Notes under the pieces: model-generated
The model's database searches: none
The model's input: only the letters and a program-made list of their open reading frames with translations
What the model was told of the DNA's origin: nothing
IMG/VR virus record: IMGVR_UViG_3300046822_000520
Span: 1 to 38,611 of that record
Source: a virus
Reading direction: 5' to 3' (one strand)
DNA length: 38,611 nucleotides
Position numbers and translations under genes: made by a program
Shown here: positions 5,072-26,063 of the stretch, in pieces
How positions within the stretch are numbered: position 1 is the stretch's first letter
Layout: each line of letters begins with the position of its first letter

Positions 5072-5288
5072 ATTGTCTCGAATTTATCTGTGGTCAGTAA
5101 ATCCTTAGGGAAGGCCTGGACGTCGATAGCCGGATAGTGCGACGCACGGAATCAACACCGGCAGCCCGCGCACCCTTACCTCACCATGCTGTCGGGGGGG
5201 CGCGAGACTGGATCACCGAGATCGATGCAAAGGGGCGTCGACGTTGAGAAGGCCTTTGGCCGACAGCTCGGAAAGACGAGCGCGCTTA

Positions 5289-17584: not shown

Positions 17585-18505
17585 ATGTCGAGCGGCGCAA
17601 AAGTTGTAAGCCACATCATTGCGGAGGTGACGCCCGGCGTTACTCCCACCGGCACCTGGGACACGCTGCGCCTCACTGGCAACGCGCTGACCCCGACCGT
17701 CAACACAGAAGTCAGCGACGAAATCACCGACACCCGCCTGAGCCAGGGCTCGGTGGCCACCAGCATCGATATCGGCGGCGATCTGACAGCGGAATTCTCG
17801 TTCGGCTCGTTCGACCAACTGCTCGAAGCTGCCTTCTACGGCGTCTGGACGGCAGATGTTCTGCGCGTGGGAGATACCCGACACACGTTTTCGATCGCAA
17901 AAGGCTACAACGACGTCGGCGTCTATGGCGTGTTCAAGGGCGCGCACGTATCGACCTTCGCCCTCGACATCCCGTCCGAAGGCAAGATCACAACCACCTT
18001 CAACATGGCCTGCTTGGATTACGCCGACAGCGAAGTTTCGATCGTTGTCTCGCCGAATGCGCCGACCACCACGCCGTTCTTTTCGAACAACAACGTCGGC
18101 ACGATTCTGGTCAATGGCCAGTCGCTCGAAGGCGTGGCGTGCGTCTCGGCCATGACCGTCAACCTCGACAACAGCCTCCAGACTCAGCGCTGCCTTGGCT
18201 CTGACAGTCTCGGCCCGGGCGCGCACATCGCTACCGAGGCCGCCATCACTGGCAGCATCACGCTGGCCTGGTCGAAGCGGGCTTGGGAGATCTGGAAGAA
18301 CACTTTCACGCGGACGCCAATCGCCGTTGTGTTCCCGATCACCGATACGCTGGGCAACAAGTACATCTTCAGTTTCCCTGCGGTGGAGGTTGACGGCGAG
18401 CTGCCGAACGGCGGTAAGCGCGACCTGATCGAGGTCACGCTGAATTACACCGTGGCCAAGCTCAGCCCGACAATTACCCGCGAAGCGGCCGATCCAAACC
18501 AGTAA
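17585..18505 (+). CDS. Major tail tube protein
   Basis: 306 aa, TCTGGAGA ribosome site. Beta-rich with family-like segments: EVTPGVTPTGTWDTLRLTGN, TDTRLSQGSVATSIDIGGDL, AEFSFGSFDQLLEAAFYG and FPAVEVDGELPNGGKRDLIE. This is the tube-forming protein of siphophage tails. Position between tail terminator and tail chaperones is canonical. A hairpin with a T run follows. Confidence 0.88.
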   Translation: MSSGAKVVSHIIAEVTPGVTPTGTWDTLRLTGNALTPTVNTEVSDEITDTRLSQGSVATSIDIGGDLTAEFSFGSFDQLLEAAFYGVWTADVLRVGDTRHTFSIAKGYNDVGVYGVFKGAHVSTFALDIPSEGKITTTFNMACLDYADSEVSIVVSPNAPTTTPFFSNNNVGTILVNGQSLEGVACVSAMTVNLDNSLQTQRCLGSDSLGPGAHIATEAAITGSITLAWSKRAWEIWKNTFTRTPIAVVFPITDTLGNKYIFSFPAVEVDGELPNGGKRDLIEVTLNYTVAKLSPTITREAADPNQ

Positions 18506-19319: not shown

Positions 19320-20006
19320 TTAGGATAGATCGCCCGCTTTCACGCGCTCCACGAAGTTTGCCAAAGGGGGAACGTCTTCGACAGGATGATCGAGAAGCTG
19401 CACCTCTCTCGACACAATAGCGGACATCAATTGTCCGGGCGTCGCATCGAATCTATCAGCGACGGACAAGAAATTTCGGTACGCATCTGCAGGAACTGCA
19501 ACAAGATTTTCTCGGGTGCCTGGCTCTTCCTCAGATCCCGGCTCGGTGAAGTGGACTTGAACCACCTCTTCTTCATCCCTCGTGCCCGCGAGCTCTTGAG
19601 CGCTCACTCCAAGCGCATCGGCAAGCTTTCCAATATCTTCTTCAAACGGTAGTAGTACGGCGAGCTCTAAGTCAGCAATGTCATCTTGAGGAATACCTGT
19701 GGCATCCGAGAGTTTCTTCCGGCTGATATTCGCCTTGTGTCGAGCATTCACAAGTCGCGTAGAAAACCCTTCGTAAATCTTGAGCCCCGTCTCTTGCATT
19801 TTCTTTGAATCGCCGCGCAACTCATCAATGGAAACCCCAAGCGCCTCTGCAAGTCGCATAAGGACTTTCAGCCGAGGCATTGACTGGCCGGATTCGTACT
19901 TTGAAATCATCGACCATGCAACGCCAGCCATGGCGCCAAGCTCTCGCTGCGTGAAGTCTTTTTCAGCTCGTAAATTTGCGAGCTTTTCAGCGAATGTTTT
20001 GTTCAT
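19320..20006 (-). CDS. Phage repressor with tandem XRE-type HTH domains
   Basis: 228 aa from the ATG at 20006. Residues about 5-62 are a classic HTH-XRE (KLANLRAEKDFTQRELGAMA, SMISKYESGQSMPRLKVLMR). Residues about 78-140 form a second, weaker HTH-like repeat (LVNARHKANISRKKLSDATG, LADALGVSAQEL). An acidic linker and a C-terminal ribbon-helix-like stretch (VPADAYRNFLSVADRFDATP) follow. There is no LexA/CI autocleavage domain (no S24 Ser-Lys pair), so relief would need an antirepressor, which is encoded nearby at 20397. It is divergent from Arc with operators between. Its stop is 16 bases from the end of GT. Confidence 0.8.
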   Translation of the reverse strand: MNKTFAEKLANLRAEKDFTQRELGAMAGVAWSMISKYESGQSMPRLKVLMRLAEALGVSIDELRGDSKKMQETGLKIYEGFSTRLVNARHKANISRKKLSDATGIPQDDIADLELAVLLPFEEDIGKLADALGVSAQELAGTRDEEEVVQVHFTEPGSEEEPGTRENLVAVPADAYRNFLSVADRFDATPGQLMSAIVSREVQLLDHPVEDVPPLANFVERVKAGDLS

Positions 20007-20029
20007 CAACTCTGTGCCGTTCTCTCTAT

Positions 20030-20063
20030 TAGGCCAATTTGGCCTAGCGCAAGATTACTTGCG
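20030..20063. promoter_or_regulatory. Operators upstream of the tandem-HTH repressor
   Basis: A perfect 17-base dyad TAGGCCAA-T-TTGGCCTA (20030-20046) lies 23 bases before the repressor start. A second, CGCAAG-ATTA-CTTGCG (20048-20063), lies next to it. They are likely binding sites for the repressor itself. Confidence 0.65.
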
Positions 20064-20087
20064 TGAGCGATCAGAATGCAACAAATG

Positions 20088-20144
20088 CAACATTGTTGTT
20101 GACAGACGACACAAACGGAACAAAACTACACAAACGAAACAAAA
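20088..20144 (+). promoter_or_regulatory. arc-ant promoter region with 19-base tandem repeats
   Basis: A dyad CAACA-T-TGTTG (20088-20098) overlaps TTGACA (20099-20104), a perfect -35; the -10 is unclear. Next come two direct repeats, ACACAAACGGAACAAAA (20109-20125) and its 16/17 match (20128-20144), with a period of 19 bases. They end 14 bases before arc and look like Arc-type operator sites. Confidence 0.55.
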
Positions 20145-20158
20145 GCACGGAGCGAGTT

Positions 20159-20329
20159 ATGAGTTCATCAAAAGAAAAAAAGGTAGTAGGGGTTAGGCTG
20201 GCCGATCTGATGAGGGAGGCGCTAAGCCTCAAGGCCGAACTAAATGGGCGAAGCTTGAGCGGAGAAATTGTATTCCGCCTGAGAAAGTCCCTTGAGCAGG
20301 AATTGCAAGATGAAAAACAAGAGGCATAA
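20159..20329 (+). CDS. Arc-like ribbon-helix-helix DNA-binding protein
   Basis: 56 aa, GGAG ribosome site 6 bases before the ATG. The pattern KKVVGVRLADLMREALSLKA then ELNGRSLSGEIVFRLRKSLE gives the beta strand plus two helices of Arc; P22 Arc has the equivalent ENGRSVNSEI. Arc binds DNA as dimer pairs and represses the antirepressor gene just downstream. The length equals P22 Arc (53 aa). A hairpin between it and ant suggests attenuation as a second control. Confidence 0.85.
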   Translation: MSSSKEKKVVGVRLADLMREALSLKAELNGRSLSGEIVFRLRKSLEQELQDEKQEA

Positions 20330-20330
20330 A

Positions 20331-20362
20331 AAAACCCCAGCGCTGGCCGGCGCTGAGGTTTT
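20331..20362 (+). terminator. Hairpin/attenuator between arc and the antirepressor
   Basis: CAGCGC (20338-20343) pairs with GCGCTG (20350-20355), extended by AACC/GGTT around an unpaired base and ending in TTTT. It begins two bases after the arc stop and ends just before the antirepressor's ribosome site. Confidence 0.6.
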
Positions 20363-20396
20363 GGGTAACGAGATCAACTACCAGGAAGAAATCGTC

Positions 20397-21257
20397 ATGT
20401 CGGATAATAGCACAAACGTAATCCCATTCAATTTCGGCAAAAAGCTGGTTCGCACCATGCTGATCGGTGATCAGCCATGGTTCGTAGCGACCGACGTCGC
20501 CTCGGCTCTCGAATATCGCGATGCGTTCAACATGAATCGCATTCTGGATGACGATGAAAAGGGTACTCAGATTGTGAGTACCCTTGGCGGCGATCAAGAA
20601 ATGCTGGTTATTAACGAGTCCGGCCTCTATTCGGCAATTCTGCGCAGCCGTAAAGCTTCCGCCAAGAATTTCAAAAAATGGGTGACCGCCGAGGTGCTTC
20701 CAGCGATCCGCAAGCACGGCCGCTATGAAGACGATGAAAGCAAGATGAACACGCTCATCGGACAGACCATCGGAACTGACGGCTTCCACATGTTGGGCGC
20801 CATCGTGAAGGGGAAGGTGGCAAGCTTGCCGGCTCACGCGCAGCGTCGTGCCACGGCAAAAATATGGGCTCAAATTCATGCAGCTTTCGGCGTGCGCTCA
20901 GCCGCTGATATCCCGGCAGAACAACTGAGTGCCGCCAGAAACTTCGTCGCAGCTTATGTCGTGCTGGAAGGTGAATACCTTCAAGCGCAAAAACATACCG
21001 GCGGGGTTCATCTCGATCAGTTCGAGGCGAGCAACCTGTACATGTTGATGTCGCGCTTCATGACCATGTACCAGCACAAAAACAGCATGCTCGCAGCGTC
21101 TCGCGCTTTGGGGTCTGGGCCGCTGATGGATTTCTTCGACCAGTTGAGCGATGGCCACATCTCCTTTTCTGCTCTCGATAAGCGCCGCGAGGAGCTCTAT
21201 GCAGCCTACAAGGCGACCGGTTGCGAAGGCGGTTACATGTGGAGGGCTGTGGCATGA
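20397..21257 (+). CDS. Bro-N family antirepressor
   Basis: 286 aa from the ATG at 20397 with AGGAAGAA upstream; an in-frame extension back to 20292 overlaps arc and is unlikely. Residues 10-115 are a Bro-N domain: VRTMLIGDQPWFVATDVASA, EYRDAFNMNRILDDDEKG, VINESGLYSAILRSRKASAK and FKKWVTAEVLPAIRKHGRY. The C-terminal half is helical (LPAHAQRRATAKIWAQIHAA) and resembles antirepressor C-terminal domains. It probably inactivates the primary repressor, with Arc and the divergent repressor holding it off in the lysogen. The stop overlaps the next start (ATGA). Confidence 0.85.
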   Translation: MSDNSTNVIPFNFGKKLVRTMLIGDQPWFVATDVASALEYRDAFNMNRILDDDEKGTQIVSTLGGDQEMLVINESGLYSAILRSRKASAKNFKKWVTAEVLPAIRKHGRYEDDESKMNTLIGQTIGTDGFHMLGAIVKGKVASLPAHAQRRATAKIWAQIHAAFGVRSAADIPAEQLSAARNFVAAYVVLEGEYLQAQKHTGGVHLDQFEASNLYMLMSRFMTMYQHKNSMLAASRALGSGPLMDFFDQLSDGHISFSALDKRREELYAAYKATGCEGGYMWRAVA

Positions 21258-21829
21258 GCATGGAGATTTTGAACCTGCGGGTGACAGGCACTTCACCGCT
21301 GATGATGCATAGCGACAAGCTCGCCAATCCTCTGCATCCGGCAACCAAGGCTCATAAGGAGTTGACCGGCAAGCGTAAAAAGGTCGACGAAGACCATTTG
21401 GCGATCGCTAAGTCTGAATTCCTTGCTGGCGTGTACTTCGATGAGCGGTCAGGGATTCACGTGCCTGGTGCCAACTTTGACGCGACATTCCTTGCGGGTG
21501 CGAAGCTGCAAAAGCTGGGCACGCACTGGAAGCGCGGCGCGCTGGTGATGACCGATAAGGCGGTGCTGGAATTCGACGGGCCGTCGACCCCAGAGGCACT
21601 GTGGGAGGATCAGCGTTTCGTTGACTGCCGAGGCGTCAAAGTGGGTCAGTCGAAGATCATGCGTTATCGCCCAATCTTCCTCGACTGGGCGTGTGAGCTT
21701 GAAGTGGCTATCAACACCGACGTACTGGACATGCAGGAGGTGCGGAAGGCCATCGAGGATTCCGGCAAGCTGATCGGTGTGTGCGAATACCGTCCTCGTT
21801 TCGGTCGTTTCGGAGTGAGCTATGTCTGA
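21254..21829 (+). CDS. Unassigned phage protein with RAMP/Cas7-like sequence pattern
   Basis: 191 aa, coupled to the antirepressor by ATGA; a second ATG at 21260 is possible. I cannot assign a named family. Three segments recall RAMP/Cas7-type RNA-binding proteins: an N-terminal strand LRVTGTSPLMMHS (like the SPL-x-IG strand), then GIHVPGANFDATFLAGA (like the IPGSSLKGALR motif), and a glycine/arginine-rich end YRPRFGRFGVSYV. A basic stretch KAHKELTGKRKK lies between. It is followed by an equally unassigned partner and then by the 5-base-periodic RNA-like locus at 22283-22504. An RNA-binding role is inference from pattern and context, not shown. Confidence 0.55.
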   Translation: MSMEILNLRVTGTSPLMMHSDKLANPLHPATKAHKELTGKRKKVDEDHLAIAKSEFLAGVYFDERSGIHVPGANFDATFLAGAKLQKLGTHWKRGALVMTDKAVLEFDGPSTPEALWEDQRFVDCRGVKVGQSKIMRYRPIFLDWACELEVAINTDVLDMQEVRKAIEDSGKLIGVCEYRPRFGRFGVSYV

Positions 21830-22280
21830 GCTGACGAAATATCCGGCGCACAAGCAGGCGGTCGAGGATTTCCTCAAAGAGTTCAAGTATGGCGATCTCG
21901 TCGGCCACGATTGGCTTGAAGCTCGGTTCGGCATGCCCTCGGTAGGCGAATCGAAGCTGCTCACGCAGGAGCAGTTCAAGGCGCGTCAGTTCGAGTGGCT
22001 TGCCAGTGTCGAGGCGTTCAAGGATGAGCTCCTCAAAGAGCATCAGGTTTGTTTGCAATCAGTGCGCGGGCGCGGCTATCGCTGGGTTCCCCCGCACGAA
22101 CAGACCGGCGTGGCCATGGACGAGCTCGGACGGAACGTGCGTAAGGTTTTTCGTTGCGCTGGACAGAAACTCCGGCACCTTCGAATCACGGAACTCACGG
22201 ACGAGCAGAGGAAAACGAGCCTCGACGCCGTTGCCAAACTCTCCGCGCTCCAGGGGATGGCTAGGAAGGAACTCAAGTAA
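21822..22280 (+). CDS. Unassigned partner protein, possible winged-helix
   Basis: 152 aa, overlapping the upstream stop by 8 bases. The N-terminal half is acidic and helical (KQAVEDFLKEFKYGDLVGHD, QEQFKARQFEWLASVEAFKD). In the middle, LLKEHQVCLQSVRGRGYRWV resembles the end of a winged-helix, where VRGxGYR forms the wing. The C-terminal part is basic and helical (NVRKVFRCAGQKLRHLRITE). No named family recognised. Its stop is 2 bases before the structured locus, so the protein and the RNA are probably on one transcript. Confidence 0.6.
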   Translation: MSELTKYPAHKQAVEDFLKEFKYGDLVGHDWLEARFGMPSVGESKLLTQEQFKARQFEWLASVEAFKDELLKEHQVCLQSVRGRGYRWVPPHEQTGVAMDELGRNVRKVFRCAGQKLRHLRITELTDEQRKTSLDAVAKLSALQGMARKELK

Positions 22281-22282
22281 CG

Positions 22283-22393
22283 CAGCGTCATGCCCTTTCA
22301 TGCGAGAGGGCATCGCGGTGCGAAAGCACTGATGGTTAGGCCTGCCTTGGAGCGGCATGCTCTGGCAAGGTGTGGCTGGGTGGGCTCCGGGCT
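22283..22393 (+). ncRNA. Structured repeat unit A: two hairpins plus 12-pentamer array
   Basis: The unit opens with CAGCGT (22283-22288), one base before hairpin 1: ATGCCCT (22290-22296) pairs with AGGGCAT (22307-22313). Spacer CGC leads to hairpin 2, GTGC-GAAA-GCAC (22318-22329), closed by a GNRA tetraloop. After TGAT comes a 60-base array (22334-22393) that divides exactly into 12 pentamers. All start with G; nine start GG, and the third base is C or T in ten. Examples are GGCAA, GGTGT, GGCTG; the last is GGGCT. A 5-base period rules out coding. Strand follows the upstream operon. No known RNA family recognised. Confidence 0.65.
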
Positions 22394-22398
22394 GAAAA

Positions 22399-22504
22399 CA
22401 GCGTAATACCCCTTCACGGATGGGGTATTGCGGTGCAGAAGCACCAAAAGGCTTGCCGTGACAAGATACGGTGGGGCAAGGTCTGATTCGGTTTGGCATG
22501 GGCC
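22399..22504 (+). ncRNA. Structured repeat unit B: two hairpins plus 11-pentamer array
   Basis: Same plan as unit A, 116 bases later: CAGCGT (22399-22404), hairpin 1 ATACCCC (22406-22412) with GGGGTAT (22422-22428), spacer TGC, hairpin 2 GGTGC-AGAA-GCACC (22432-22445), AAAA, then 11 pentamers (22450-22504). All start with G; the last is GGGCC. Aligned one pentamer out of step with unit A, the first bases are mostly kept while the last two of each pentamer mostly differ. Stem sequences in hairpin 1 differ by compensating changes between units (ATGCCC/GGGCAT against ATACCC/GGGTAT), which supports a folded RNA. Confidence 0.65.
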
Positions 22505-22516
22505 GCAAACGGCACT

Positions 22517-22547
22517 GAAACGGCACCATATGGTGCCGTTTCTTTAT
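22517..22547 (+). terminator. Terminator-like hairpin closing the repeat locus
   Basis: An 11-base perfect stem (22517-22527 with 22532-22542, loop ATAT) is followed by TTTATT. It would end the transcript carrying units A and B. Confidence 0.75.
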
Positions 22548-22557
22548 TCCAGAGTTT

Positions 22558-22585
22558 TTGCACTTTCTTTTGTTGATGTTAGATT
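22558..22585 (+). promoter_or_regulatory. Putative sigma70 promoter of the lipoprotein gene
   Basis: TTGCAC (22558-22563), 16-base spacer, TAGATT (22580-22585), 26 bases before the GTG start. It would give independent expression from the lysogen. Confidence 0.45.
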
Positions 22586-22611
22586 GCTGCTATCAACAGG
22601 GAGGGTTTTGC

Positions 22612-23106
22612 GTGATCAAACGTCTTTCAGCCATATCATTCTGTGCTGCATTGCTTTTCGGGTGCGCCACGCCGCCTCAACCAGTTCAGAGAATTCCGTT
22701 TCCTGTCGAGGAATATTCGAGGCTCCCTACAAAAGGGACGGGGGTCGTCGAGGGGCAGGCGTTTTTGAAGACTAATGGTGGTGACGTTAAGTTTGGCGCA
22801 GGATCAGAGGTTACCTTGATCCCCGTTACTACTTACTCAGAGCAATGGTATGACGTTGGCTTCGTTCAGCATAAGCCTATAACAGAGTCAGATCGTAGAC
22901 AGCTTCCATATGTTCGATTCACTCAGGCCGACGGGAATGGCAATTTCAAATTCACTGAGCTACCGGCTGGACAGTATTTTATCAGTGCTGAGGTGATATG
23001 GCAGGCTCCTTCACCTTACGGCGGTACCGCTAAGCAGGGCGGACGAATCGCAAATCGCATAACTGTGAACGAGGGAAAATCGACTCGGACAATGCTTACG
23101 CGCTGA
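22612..23106 (+). CDS. Lipoprotein with beta-sandwich-like domain, probable moron
   Basis: 164 aa from the GTG at 22612, with GGGAGGG 6 bases upstream. Signal peptide IKRLSAISFCAALLFGC with lipobox L-F-G-C and lipidated cysteine 18. The mature part has ADGNGNFKFTELPAGQYFIS, a pattern of carboxypeptidase-regulatory-like (transthyretin-type) beta-sandwich domains. It has its own promoter and terminator and lies between the antirepressor operon and the tape measure gene, so it is probably expressed by the lysogen to alter the envelope. Function unknown; superinfection exclusion is a guess. Confidence 0.75.
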   Translation: MIKRLSAISFCAALLFGCATPPQPVQRIPFPVEEYSRLPTKGTGVVEGQAFLKTNGGDVKFGAGSEVTLIPVTTYSEQWYDVGFVQHKPITESDRRQLPYVRFTQADGNGNFKFTELPAGQYFISAEVIWQAPSPYGGTAKQGGRIANRITVNEGKSTRTMLTR

Positions 23107-23159: not shown

Positions 23160-26063
23160 ATGGCGCAGACGTCCCGCTTAGTCCTGGAGATCGATAGCCG
23201 GGATGCGGAAAAGAAAGCAGCGGATACCCGCGAGGCTTTGGAAGAGCTGGAGGCTCTAGGAGTTCCAACGCAGCGCGCCATGGCCAAAGCAGCGGCAGGC
23301 ATCAACGAAACAGGGAAGAGTGCTGATGGTGCGCGTAAGTCGTATGGTTACTACCGAGATGAGGTTGAGCAACTGCTCGGCAGGCTCGACCCTCTTCGTA
23401 GAAAGCAGCAGGAGCTAGCGAAAAGCCAGGCTGACTTGGCCGCCGCCTTCAAACGAGGCGATATCGGAGAGGCTGGCTACAAGGAGTTTTCGAGCATCAT
23501 CCGTGACCAGTCCACCGCGATTACCGCACAAAGAGCAGCTCTAAAAAGCCTGAGTGGCGATATGGGCAGAACTGGGAACACTGCCAAACAGACCGCCGCT
23601 GCAATGAGAATGTTGCCTGCGCAGTTCAGCGATATTTTCGTCAGCTTGCAGGGCGGTCAAGCACCGCTGACAGTTTTGCTGCAACAAGGCAGTCAAATCA
23701 AAGATTCCTTCGGAGGCATAGGTGCGGCGTCGAAGGCACTGGGCGGATACGTCGCGGGCTTGGTAAATCCATTTTCGGCTGCGGCAGTAGCAGTGGGCGC
23801 ATTGACGCTTGCTTATTACAAGGGCAGCCAAGAGGCAGACGAGTACAACAAGTCCCTAATATTCACCGGTAATGTTGCCGGTACAAGCGCTAAGCAGCTG
23901 GCATCGATGGCGCAAAAGGTTAGCGCAACGGTCGGCACTACCGGTGCTGCTGCCGAGGTGCTGGCAAAGCTTGCGGGCAATGGGCAGATCGCCAGCGGCA
24001 GCTTCGAAGAGATAACCGAAGCTGCGCTGCAGATGGAAAAGGCCACCGGCAGGGCCATTGACGAGACGATTGCCGAGTTCGCAAAAATCGCCAAGGATCC
24101 GGTCGCAGCGGCCAAGGAGCTCAACGCCCAGTACCACTTTCTGACAGCCAGTACTTACGCTCAAATCACGGCTCTCAAGGAGCAAGGCGACACGATTGGT
24201 GCTACGAAGCTGCTTACCGATACCTACGCAAAAACGATTGAGGAGCGCACCGGACAGGTAACGCAAAACCTCGGCTTGATCGAGAGCGCTTGGAACAAAA
24301 TCAAAGAAGCAGCCAGTGGCGCGCTCGACGCCGCGAAAGATATCGGCCGAATTCAGACCCTTGAACAGCAAGCGGAAGTTATTCGACAAAGGTTGCAGAC
24401 AAATCAAGGGCGGGGCGGGCGAGTGGTCGCGCTCGGGATTGAGACACGTGATGTTGCGAAGGATCGTGGCGATCTGGCTTTCCTTGAACTTCAGATTGAT
24501 GCAGAGAAAGAGCGTGCTAAATGGGTCGGAACAGTCAGGAAAGAAAACGACCTCTCTATCACCGCACAAGCATCACTGAGCAGTCAGCTAGCCGCGTCAG
24601 CAAGCAACGCCGAAAAACTCAAGAAGCGACTTGAAGAAATCAATCGTCTTGCCAAGGACGCGAAAGGCGGAACCGGCGGTAAGGTTTACACGGATCTCGA
24701 ACTCCAGCAGCTCCGGGATGCTGCAGTAAAAGAGTTTGCAGATCCAAAGCCTAAGGCTGTTACCGAAGACGCGGGCCAGCGGATGCTCGATGAGGCCCGT
24801 CAGCGCTACGCGGTTCTTCAGCAGCAAAACTCGCTAATCGGCACCCAAACCGACGGAACAAAGTCGCTTGGCACCGAGACCAAAAAGCTGCTAGAGCTGG
24901 AACAGCAAATCGCCGATCTCAAGGATAAGAAAACGCTTACTGCCGCGCAGAAGCAGATCCTGGCCATGGCTGATCTCAACCTGGCGCAGCAGAAGCAGAA
25001 TGCGGCGCTAGAAAAGCAGACGGACCTGCTGAAGACCGCCGCCGAGCAGCGTCAGAAGCTCGCGGCGTTCCAAGAGAACCTGCAAACGCAGCTGAAGACC
25101 GCCCAGACCGGTTTGGACAACGATTTGGCAGGGCTCGGCATGGGCGACCTGCAACGTCAGCGGCTGAAGGAGCAACTAAGTATCCAGCAGTCGTATCAGT
25201 CGCAGCTGGACAGGCTGACCTACGATTACAACAAGAGCGACAAGTCCGACGGCAAGGCAGAGCTGTACAGCCAGCAGACGGAGGCTTTGCGATCTGCTCT
25301 TCAATCACGCTTATCAATGCAGCAGCAATATTACTCGGAGATTGACAAGGCGCAGTCGGATTGGTCGATCGGAGCGAATTCCGCTTTCCAAGCCTACGCA
25401 GATAAAGCTGCCGATGTTGCCGGCCAAAGCCGGGAACTCTTTACCAATGCCTTCGGCGGCATGGAGGATGCGATCGTTCGTTTTGTCCGAACCGGTAAAT
25501 TGTCATTCAAAGAGCTGGCCGACGGAATCATTGAAGATCTCATACGCATTCAAGTGCGCCAGGCCGCCGTAGGGATATTTGGCAGTTTATTTGGCGGGCT
25601 GGCGGGCGGAGCCGCATCGTCGAGCAGTGGGACAATGACTGGATTCAGTGAAACCATTTCCAATACTGGATTCTCGAGTGGCGGCTACACCGGCGACGGT
25701 GGCAAGTTCGAGCCGAAAGGCGTCGTGCACGGTGGCGAGTTCGTTGTCCGCAAGGAAGCGGTAAGCCAGCCGGGCGCGCGCGAGTTCCTCGAGCGCATGA
25801 ACGCGAACACCAAGGGGTACGCGGATGGCGGCTATGTCGGCGCGACCGCCGCAGGATCGACCTCCAATGTTGTACCGATCTCGTCTGGCGCATCGGCTGC
25901 ACCGGTCATCCAGCAGAGCTTCAGCTTCCAAGGTACGCCGGACGACGCCACTGTAAACATGGTCAGGGAGGCCGCGATGCAGGGGGCAAAGGGCGGCTAC
26001 GAGCTGGTCGTGCGCGACCTGAAAATGAACGGAACCATCCGCCAGCTGATCGCACGGCGCTAA
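23160..26063 (+). CDS. Tail tape measure protein
   Basis: 967 aa, CGGAGAA ribosome site. Long helical regions are rich in Gln, Lys and Ala (KSQADLAAAFKRGD, EKQTDLLKTAAEQRQKL). A hydrophobic stretch lies at about residues 195-220 (LGGYVAGLVNPFSAAAVAVG). The C-terminal part has the lambda-type tape measure signature: FTNAFGGMEDAIVRFVRTGK, LSFKELADGIIEDLIRIQVR, then GVVHGGEFVVRKEAVSQPG. It sets tail length and enters the host envelope at ejection. Using about 1.5 angstrom per residue for helical tape measures, the tail would be about 145 nm. Confidence 0.93.
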   Translation: MAQTSRLVLEIDSRDAEKKAADTREALEELEALGVPTQRAMAKAAAGINETGKSADGARKSYGYYRDEVEQLLGRLDPLRRKQQELAKSQADLAAAFKRGDIGEAGYKEFSSIIRDQSTAITAQRAALKSLSGDMGRTGNTAKQTAAAMRMLPAQFSDIFVSLQGGQAPLTVLLQQGSQIKDSFGGIGAASKALGGYVAGLVNPFSAAAVAVGALTLAYYKGSQEADEYNKSLIFTGNVAGTSAKQLASMAQKVSATVGTTGAAAEVLAKLAGNGQIASGSFEEITEAALQMEKATGRAIDETIAEFAKIAKDPVAAAKELNAQYHFLTASTYAQITALKEQGDTIGATKLLTDTYAKTIEERTGQVTQNLGLIESAWNKIKEAASGALDAAKDIGRIQTLEQQAEVIRQRLQTNQGRGGRVVALGIETRDVAKDRGDLAFLELQIDAEKERAKWVGTVRKENDLSITAQASLSSQLAASASNAEKLKKRLEEINRLAKDAKGGTGGKVYTDLELQQLRDAAVKEFADPKPKAVTEDAGQRMLDEARQRYAVLQQQNSLIGTQTDGTKSLGTETKKLLELEQQIADLKDKKTLTAAQKQILAMADLNLAQQKQNAALEKQTDLLKTAAEQRQKLAAFQENLQTQLKTAQTGLDNDLAGLGMGDLQRQRLKEQLSIQQSYQSQLDRLTYDYNKSDKSDGKAELYSQQTEALRSALQSRLSMQQQYYSEIDKAQSDWSIGANSAFQAYADKAADVAGQSRELFTNAFGGMEDAIVRFVRTGKLSFKELADGIIEDLIRIQVRQAAVGIFGSLFGGLAGGAASSSSGTMTGFSETISNTGFSSGGYTGDGGKFEPKGVVHGGEFVVRKEAVSQPGAREFLERMNANTKGYADGGYVGATAAGSTSNVVPISSGASAAPVIQQSFSFQGTPDDATVNMVREAAMQGAKGGYELVVRDLKMNGTIRQLIARR

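What the first reader, a model, noticed from the sequence alone, without database searches (positions are those of the whole stretch)
22283..22504. Tandem hairpin-plus-pentamer-array elements: candidate new phage RNA
Two 106-111-base units, 116 bases apart, share the order CAGCGT, hairpin 1, hairpin 2 with a GAAA/AGAA loop, a 4-base spacer, and a strict 5-base-periodic array. Array A (22334-22393) has 12 pentamers and array B (22450-22504) has 11; every one of the 23 begins with G, most with GG, and the third base is usually C or T. The last two bases of each pentamer vary between units while the framework is kept, and hairpin 1 shows compensating base changes. That is neither coding (3-base period) nor a simple repeat. 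One reading is an RNA in which a protein subunit grips each pentamer, leaving variable bases exposed. A G-quadruplex-forming element is the main alternative, since GGN3 repeats could stack.
Basis: partly seen in the sequence, partly recalled or inferred. Interest (0 to 1): 0.95.

Follow-up and report, generated by a model that had tools for sequence, protein, structure and literature searches.

The report
Phage VIPR guide RNAs targeting rivals
The two pentamer arrays are guide RNAs of a VIPR system, a recently described phage weapon related to CRISPR that reads two of every three DNA bases, and here they appear aimed at tail genes of rival phages while the phage's own copies of those genes are mismatched.

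Summary
Two hairpin-plus-GNNNN arrays lie directly downstream of a two-gene pair (window 21254-21829 and 21822-22280). The same layout recurs in most of about 120 related phage loci checked, always on this strand. The framework is G (100%) G (74%) Y (98.6%) N N.

This is a VIPR system (type II; P. fulva/SUSP1 lineage), described in a 2026 preprint (PMC13142463). The upstream protein matches the solved SUSP1 Vipr (PDB 36PP, E=2e-44), and its model matches Cas7/Csm3. The G-quadruplex and "new RNA" readings were not.

I re-derived the code independently. Read with a one-base skip, 52 of 133 guides have a site matching at least 18/20 in related phages, against 0-2 for other skips or shuffled guides.

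Guide B reads FVKTGKLSF, the conserved tape-measure motif: at least 120 exact hits in IMG/VR, 119 in that motif; controls gave 1 and 2. Guide A reads RHTFSIAK on the antisense strand of the major tail protein gene. The phage's own copies are mismatched (15/18 and 16/20). Relatives' guides in turn match this phage.

New member of a known kind; tail-gene targeting and codon-level self-mismatch go beyond the preprint's main text.

The parts
21254..21829 (+). vipr: Vipr protein, RAMP/Cas7-like RNA-binding subunit, 191 aa (phrog_4652)
   Evidence: phmmer to PDB 36PP_D 'SUSP1 Vipr protein' E=2.1e-44, profile E=6.3e-57; AlphaFold2 model pLDDT 93 matches Csm3 and type VII Cas7, E down to 2.7e-5, prob 1.00
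21822..22280 (+). vap1-type accessory protein, 152 aa (phrog_5926), overlapping vipr
   Evidence: PHROG hit; tblastn relative in phage SUSP1 itself (KT454805.2, E=5e-7) and in Felixounavirus, where it is next to a vipr gene. DNA binding is the preprint's prediction for type II vap, not tested here
22283..22333 (+). leader hairpins before vrRNA A; tail-like sequence with no array upstream, possible processing or boundary element
   Evidence: sequence, fold; conserved in most relatives but absent in L039, L041, L043
22334..22388 (+). vrRNA A guide tract, 11 GGYNN repeats: TA CT TT GC AT CT AA GT TG GG CC
   Evidence: same guide in L006 except the last dinucleotide
22389..22445 (+). vrRNA A 3' tail: GGGCT end pentamer, GCTG/CAGC hairpin 22391-22402, covarying hairpin 1 22403-22431, hairpin 2 22432-22445
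   Evidence: 38-sequence alignment A3; GCTG/CAGC in 98 tails and GCCG/CGGC in 28
22450..22499 (+). vrRNA B guide tract, 10 GGYNN repeats: TT GT AA AC GG AA CT TC TT AT; the first nine steps decode to F V K T G K L S F
22500..22546 (+). vrRNA B terminal form of the tail: GGGCC end pentamer, GCCG/CGGC hairpin 22502-22513, then intrinsic terminator stem 22517-22542 with T run
   Evidence: the GCCG form is the last array in 28 of 28 cases
20063..21257 (+). Arc-like regulator (20063-20329) and Bro-N antirepressor (20292-21257), the operon whose 3' end overlaps vipr; probably controls its expression (inferred)
   Evidence: same gene order in Medea1
25482..25508 (+). own tape-measure copy of the guide B target (FVRTGKLSF), 15/18 match: Lys to Arg CGA and Leu CTN to TTG
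17875..17907 (-). own major-tail-protein copy of the guide A target (TRHTFSIAKGY), 16/20 match; Ser is TCG instead of AGY

Best explanation
The feature is the guide-RNA cassette of a type II VIPR system. The overlapping vipr and vap1 genes and the two vrRNAs form one unit ending at an intrinsic terminator. Vipr subunits, Cas7-like, are expected to line up along each vrRNA, one per GGY, exposing the NN pairs; the complex then binds double-stranded DNA whose sequence matches NN.x.NN.x with one base skipped per step. Skips fall on codon wobble positions, so each guide in effect targets a conserved peptide motif. Guide B targets tape-measure genes (FVKTGKLSF) and guide A targets major-tail-protein genes (RHTFSIAK) of competing lambda-like siphophages. 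Binding would repress those genes and block rival virion assembly, while the phage's own copies carry NN mismatches. Shown here: homology, architecture, code, targets, mismatches. Shown by others: for the SUSP1 and P. fulva systems, vrRNA expression and co-purification with Vipr; for SUSP1 also specific DNA binding under the 1-nt skip rule and transcriptional silencing. Inferred: expression and repression by this locus.
For: Vipr matches PDB 36PP SUSP1 Vipr over its full length, and its confident model matches Csm3/Cas7. Vap relative in SUSP1. GGYNN framework over 70 distinct arrays. Code test on VIPR-bearing contigs with arrays masked: 1-nt skip, 52/133 guides with sites of 18/20 or better (441 sites); skip 0: 1; skip 2: 2; skip 3: 0; shuffled order 0-2 guides (a smaller test gave 190 hits vs 0 and 1 for skips 0 and 2, and 0 in five shuffles). 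Guide A with one dinucleotide left open: 85 hits; 74 of the 80 sites read are the antisense HTFSIAK motif. 53 of 57 guides with targets lie in an open wobble frame of 80 aa or more. Relatives' guides match this phage in tape measure, vipr, antirepressor and major tail genes, 0.07 chance sites expected. Preprint PMC13142463.
Against: Nothing shows that this locus is transcribed or active. Guide A has no perfect target in the collections searched: best 18 of its first 20 NN bases (19/22 over all eleven), no exact 10-NN match, and only chance-level hits in 299 Pseudomonas genomes, of which one was the major tail gene. The preprint's main text says P. fulva-clade guides mainly target lysis-lysogeny regulators and does not mention tape-measure targets. 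The self-mismatch trend over all guides is modest (own copy below the median of other homologues in 16, above in 6, tied in 2).
Confidence: 0.95

Rival explanations
1. The array is a multi-copy protein-binding RNA without guide function (a TRAP-like ring-binding or sponge RNA), the NN bases being free to vary.
For: Strict 5-base period resembles TRAP sites (11 triplets with 2-base spacers, own knowledge); bases 4-5 look variable within one array.
Against: NN bases are conserved between homologous guides while bases 2-3 drift and they spell conserved phage peptide motifs; shuffling the dinucleotides destroys nearly all matches.
Confidence: 0.02
2. A G-quadruplex-forming element stacks GG pairs of successive repeats.
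For: GG-rich array; a few possible two-tier motifs in array A.
Against: About 26% of pentamers lack the second G; array B has no two-tier motif with short loops; neither has four G3+ tracts; the obligatory pyrimidine and target-coding NN are unexplained.
Confidence: 0.01
3. The system is a VIPR, but its guides regulate the phage's own tail genes (self-regulation) rather than rivals.
For: Own homologues exist and match at 15/18 and 16/20; the cassette sits next to tail genes.
Against: Foreign copies match better (18/18 exact for B); of 26 guides with an own homologue, only one, a weak single hit, reaches 18/20 at home; a close relative (L006) has a different guide B.
Confidence: 0.04

Closest known systems
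Type II VIPR system, SUSP1 and P. fulva prophage clades (PMC13142463; PDB 36PP)
   Same: Vipr and Vap homologues, GGY/NN repeat tract followed by a structured 3' tail, vrRNAs downstream of the genes, 1-nt skip target code, wobble-aligned skips, rival phage targets.
   Different: This locus targets tail structural genes rather than a satellite or mainly lysis-lysogeny regulators; its tail is a three-hairpin form (the pseudoknot reported for the SUSP1 clade was not tested); some relatives have arrays of 26-31 pentamers against 9-16 reported.
Class 1 CRISPR-Cas Cas7/Csm3 (RAMP) backbone
   Same: Predicted Vipr fold matches Csm3 and type VII Cas7.
   Different: No CRISPR repeats, spacers or cas genes; discontinuous guide with 3 of 5 bases unread.
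TRAP-binding trp leader RNA
   Same: 5-base-period repeats bound by a multimeric protein (own knowledge).
   Different: The neighbouring protein is a RAMP homologue, not TRAP; the variable bases encode targets.

Membership tests
VIPR (type II) | Vipr protein: RAMP homologue of about 20 kDa | tested here: met
   36PP_D E=2.1e-44; fold match to Csm3/Cas7; 191 aa
VIPR (type II) | Companion vap gene as in SUSP1 | tested here: met
   Relative in phiSUSP1 E=5e-7; adjacent to vipr in Felixounavirus genomes
VIPR (type II) | vrRNAs with 9-16 GGY/NN repeats | tested here: met
   11 and 10 repeats; framework statistics
VIPR (type II) | Conserved structured 3' tail after the repeat tract | tested here: met
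   Covarying tail; GCTG/CAGC versus terminal GCCG/CGGC
VIPR (type II) | NN dinucleotides match targets with a 1-nt skip, at codon wobble | tested here: met
VIPR (type II) | vrRNA expressed and bound by Vipr; RNP binds dsDNA and silences | not testable with these tools
   Shown by others for SUSP1; for P. fulva vrRNA expression and co-purification
VIPR (type II) | Phylogenetic placement among the seven VIPR types | not tested
   Assigned to type II by sequence similarity to SUSP1 Vipr and Vap only; no tree built
CRISPR-Cas | CRISPR repeats/spacers and cas genes at the locus | tested here: not met
   No Rfam match in the region, no repeat array of that kind; neighbouring genes are regulators and tail genes
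G-quadruplex element | Four regularly spaced G tracts of 3 or more | tested here: not met

The most novel reading that the evidence does not exclude
In this Pseudomonas-phage VIPR lineage many guides are directed at late virion genes, above all tape measure, major tail protein and tip protein J, reading conserved peptide motifs through wobble-skipping. Self versus non-self is set not by a PAM but by the phage's own motif differing at unskipped positions, through conservative substitutions and the synonymous switches available there (Leu CTN/TTR, Ser AGY/TCN), so that guides and own genes co-evolve.
Probability: 0.5. Interest if true: 0.75.

Novelty: new member of a known kind. Interest (0 to 1): 0.58.

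Why it matters
It gives an independent, sequence-only confirmation of the noncontiguous VIPR code, which I found reported in a single preprint, and makes concrete predictions of targets and mismatch positions for a Pseudomonas phage clade. If the tail-gene targeting holds, VIPR guides act partly as weapons against rival virion assembly that recognise protein motifs at the DNA level, and self-discrimination by six-fold-codon switches is a simple testable principle.

Tried and rejected
Rfam at gathering and relaxed thresholds found nothing in the region. Single-sequence AlphaFold of Vipr failed (pLDDT 30); a 61-sequence alignment fixed it. Guide A exact 10-NN search of IMG/VR: no hit; 299 Pseudomonas genomes with 2 mismatches: 2 hits, about chance level, though one (L170) proved to be the major tail gene and revealed the antisense target. 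8-NN guide A search: 8 hits, not tail genes. Skip-3 matches are the arrays matching themselves or homologous arrays; masking removed them. An unbiased tape-measure sample from Pseudomonas genomes gave only two copies with the motif inside the fetched stretch (17/18 and 18/18), too few for a rate. The one genome-contig scan gave two loci. Plasmid search: none. Vap against PDB: none. Promoter scan: no hit above chance near the cassette.

Full report
Observation. Runs of 13 and 12 phase-locked G are the only runs longer than 8 on either strand of the window.

Neighbourhood. The arrays follow two overlapping genes, phrog_4652 and phrog_5926, which in turn follow an Arc-like regulator and a Bro-N antirepressor; a divergent helix-turn-helix-like gene lies upstream (by eye). 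The cassette sits between a tail assembly chaperone and the tape measure gene. In Pseudomonas phage Medea1 the same cassette, with a 15-pentamer array and a degenerate second unit, lies at another place, between tail genes K and I. The cassette therefore moves as a unit.

Relatives. IMG/VR holds 39 loci close to the second gene and 224 relatives of the first (80 kept). Almost all carry one to four arrays on the coding strand next to the genes. LESphi2 and Felixounavirus phages, the group that includes SUSP1, carry the same gene pair; in LESphi2 arrays lie upstream of the pair, and in the Felixounavirus loci they flank it. Over 70 distinct arrays position 1 is G in 100%, position 2 G in 74%, position 3 C/T in 98.6%, positions 4-5 unrestricted; position 1 is partly so by construction, since arrays were found as runs of phased G. 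Between homologous arrays the last two bases are conserved while bases 2-3 drift, so the information is in NN.

Identity. A literature search found the VIPR preprint (PMC13142463): Vipr, a RAMP homologue, with guide RNAs made of GGY/NN repeats that recognise DNA by the NN pairs with a one-base skip. The window's first protein matches the solved SUSP1 Vipr, PDB 36PP, at E=2.1e-44 (profile 6.3e-57). An AlphaFold model from a 61-sequence alignment (pLDDT 93) matches Csm3 and type VII Cas7 with probability 1.00 (E from 2.7e-5, TM about 0.5). The second protein has a relative in SUSP1 itself. Type assignment rests on similarity, not on a tree.

Unit structure. The last pentamer GGGCT starts a GCTG-AAAA-CAGC hairpin; hairpins 1 and 2 follow. 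Thirty-eight such tails show 97.8% paired cells and 13 of 18 pairs with two-sided changes, against 8.0 in shuffles. In 28 cases the stem is GCCG/CGGC instead of GCTG/CAGC (98 cases), a compensated change, and all 28 are the last array of their locus; vrRNA B is of this form, with a terminator at 22517-22542. The hairpins are thus better assigned to the 3' tail, as in the preprint. The hairpins before array A are a leader of unknown role, absent in some loci.

Code. I tested the reading rule on sequences of my own. Against 0.85 Mb of mostly VIPR-bearing contigs with arrays masked, 52 of 133 guides have a site matching 18/20 or better with a one-base skip (441 sites); skips of 0, 2 and 3 give 1, 2 and 0 guides; shuffled dinucleotide order gives 0-2. 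With the larger pool 57 guides have targets, 53 in an open reading frame in which the skip is the wobble base. By clustering, 19 fall in tape measure genes, 8 in major tail protein (phrog_290, named minor tail protein there), 6 in protein J, 3 in rival vipr genes, 3 in a minor tail protein, others in Arc-like, antirepressor, tail completion and chaperone genes. The pool is rich in tail modules, because it consists of DNA around the cassette and of guide-B hits, so these proportions are not unbiased.

This phage's guides. Guide B is TT GT AA AC GG AA CT TC TT AT. A permuted control gave 1 hit and a two-base-skip control 2. Guide A has no exact full target, but with one dinucleotide left open it gives 85 hits, and 74 of the 80 sites read are the antisense strand of the major tail motif [TV]RHTFSIAK[GN]Y or close to it. 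One guide reads the coding and one the opposite strand, as expected for double-stranded DNA binding.

Self versus rival. The phage's own tape measure reads FVRTGKLSF with codons CGA and TTG, 15/18. Its own major tail protein has the identical peptide RHTFSIAKGY but spells Ser as TCG instead of AGY, 16/20. Of 26 guides with a homologue of their target at home, 25 fall below 18/20 there (mean own 14.8, foreign best 19.0). Since the foreign value is a maximum, the fairer comparison is with the median of all homologues: own below in 16, above in 6, tied in 2, suggestive only. Conversely, guides of relatives match this phage in tape measure (23670-23720, 24116-24148), vipr (21341-21373), antirepressor (20768-20797) and major tail (18427-18459) genes at 18/20 or better, where 0.07 sites are expected by chance.

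What is shown and what is inferred. Shown here: homology, structure, code, targets, mismatches. Shown by others: expression and Vipr co-purification of vrRNAs for the SUSP1 and P. fulva systems, and DNA binding and silencing for SUSP1. Inferred: that this copy is expressed, that it represses rival tail genes, and that the own-copy mismatches are selected.

Noticed in passing
window 5088-5166 (+): Rfam Proteo-phage-1 RNA (RF03044, 63.9 bits), a phage RNA family, lies elsewhere in the same genome.
   Followed up: no
window 22558-23106 (+); L001 4112-4504: A small lipoprotein-like gene follows the vrRNA cassette, but a different one sits at the same place in Medea1; a variable accessory slot downstream of the arrays. 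Guide L276.2 weakly matches the Medea1 one (18/20).
   Followed up: partly
L016 6521-6650, L021 6521-6675: Guide arrays of 26-31 pentamers, longer than the 9-16 reported, with internally repeated blocks, as if extended by duplication.
   Followed up: no
L007/L031/L034/L035/L042 after the last array: Some loci end with tail hairpin 1 and a degenerate hairpin 2 instead of the GCCG form with terminator: two alternative ends of the cassette.
   Followed up: partly
L049 8040-8576; L284-L288: More distant Viprs (45-55% identity): arrays lie upstream of vipr in L284, L285 and L287; no array of this form was found near the Thiodictyon MAG copy.
   Followed up: no
L037.1, L246.1, L009.1 guides: Guides reading Arc-like repressor and antirepressor genes, the same immunity-type operon that precedes vipr in this window, consistent with the preprint's lysogeny-switch targets.
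   Followed up: partly
window 19320-20009 (-): Divergent helix-turn-helix repressor-like gene opposite the Arc-antirepressor-vipr operon, a P22 immI-like layout inside the tail module that may control VIPR expression.
   Followed up: no
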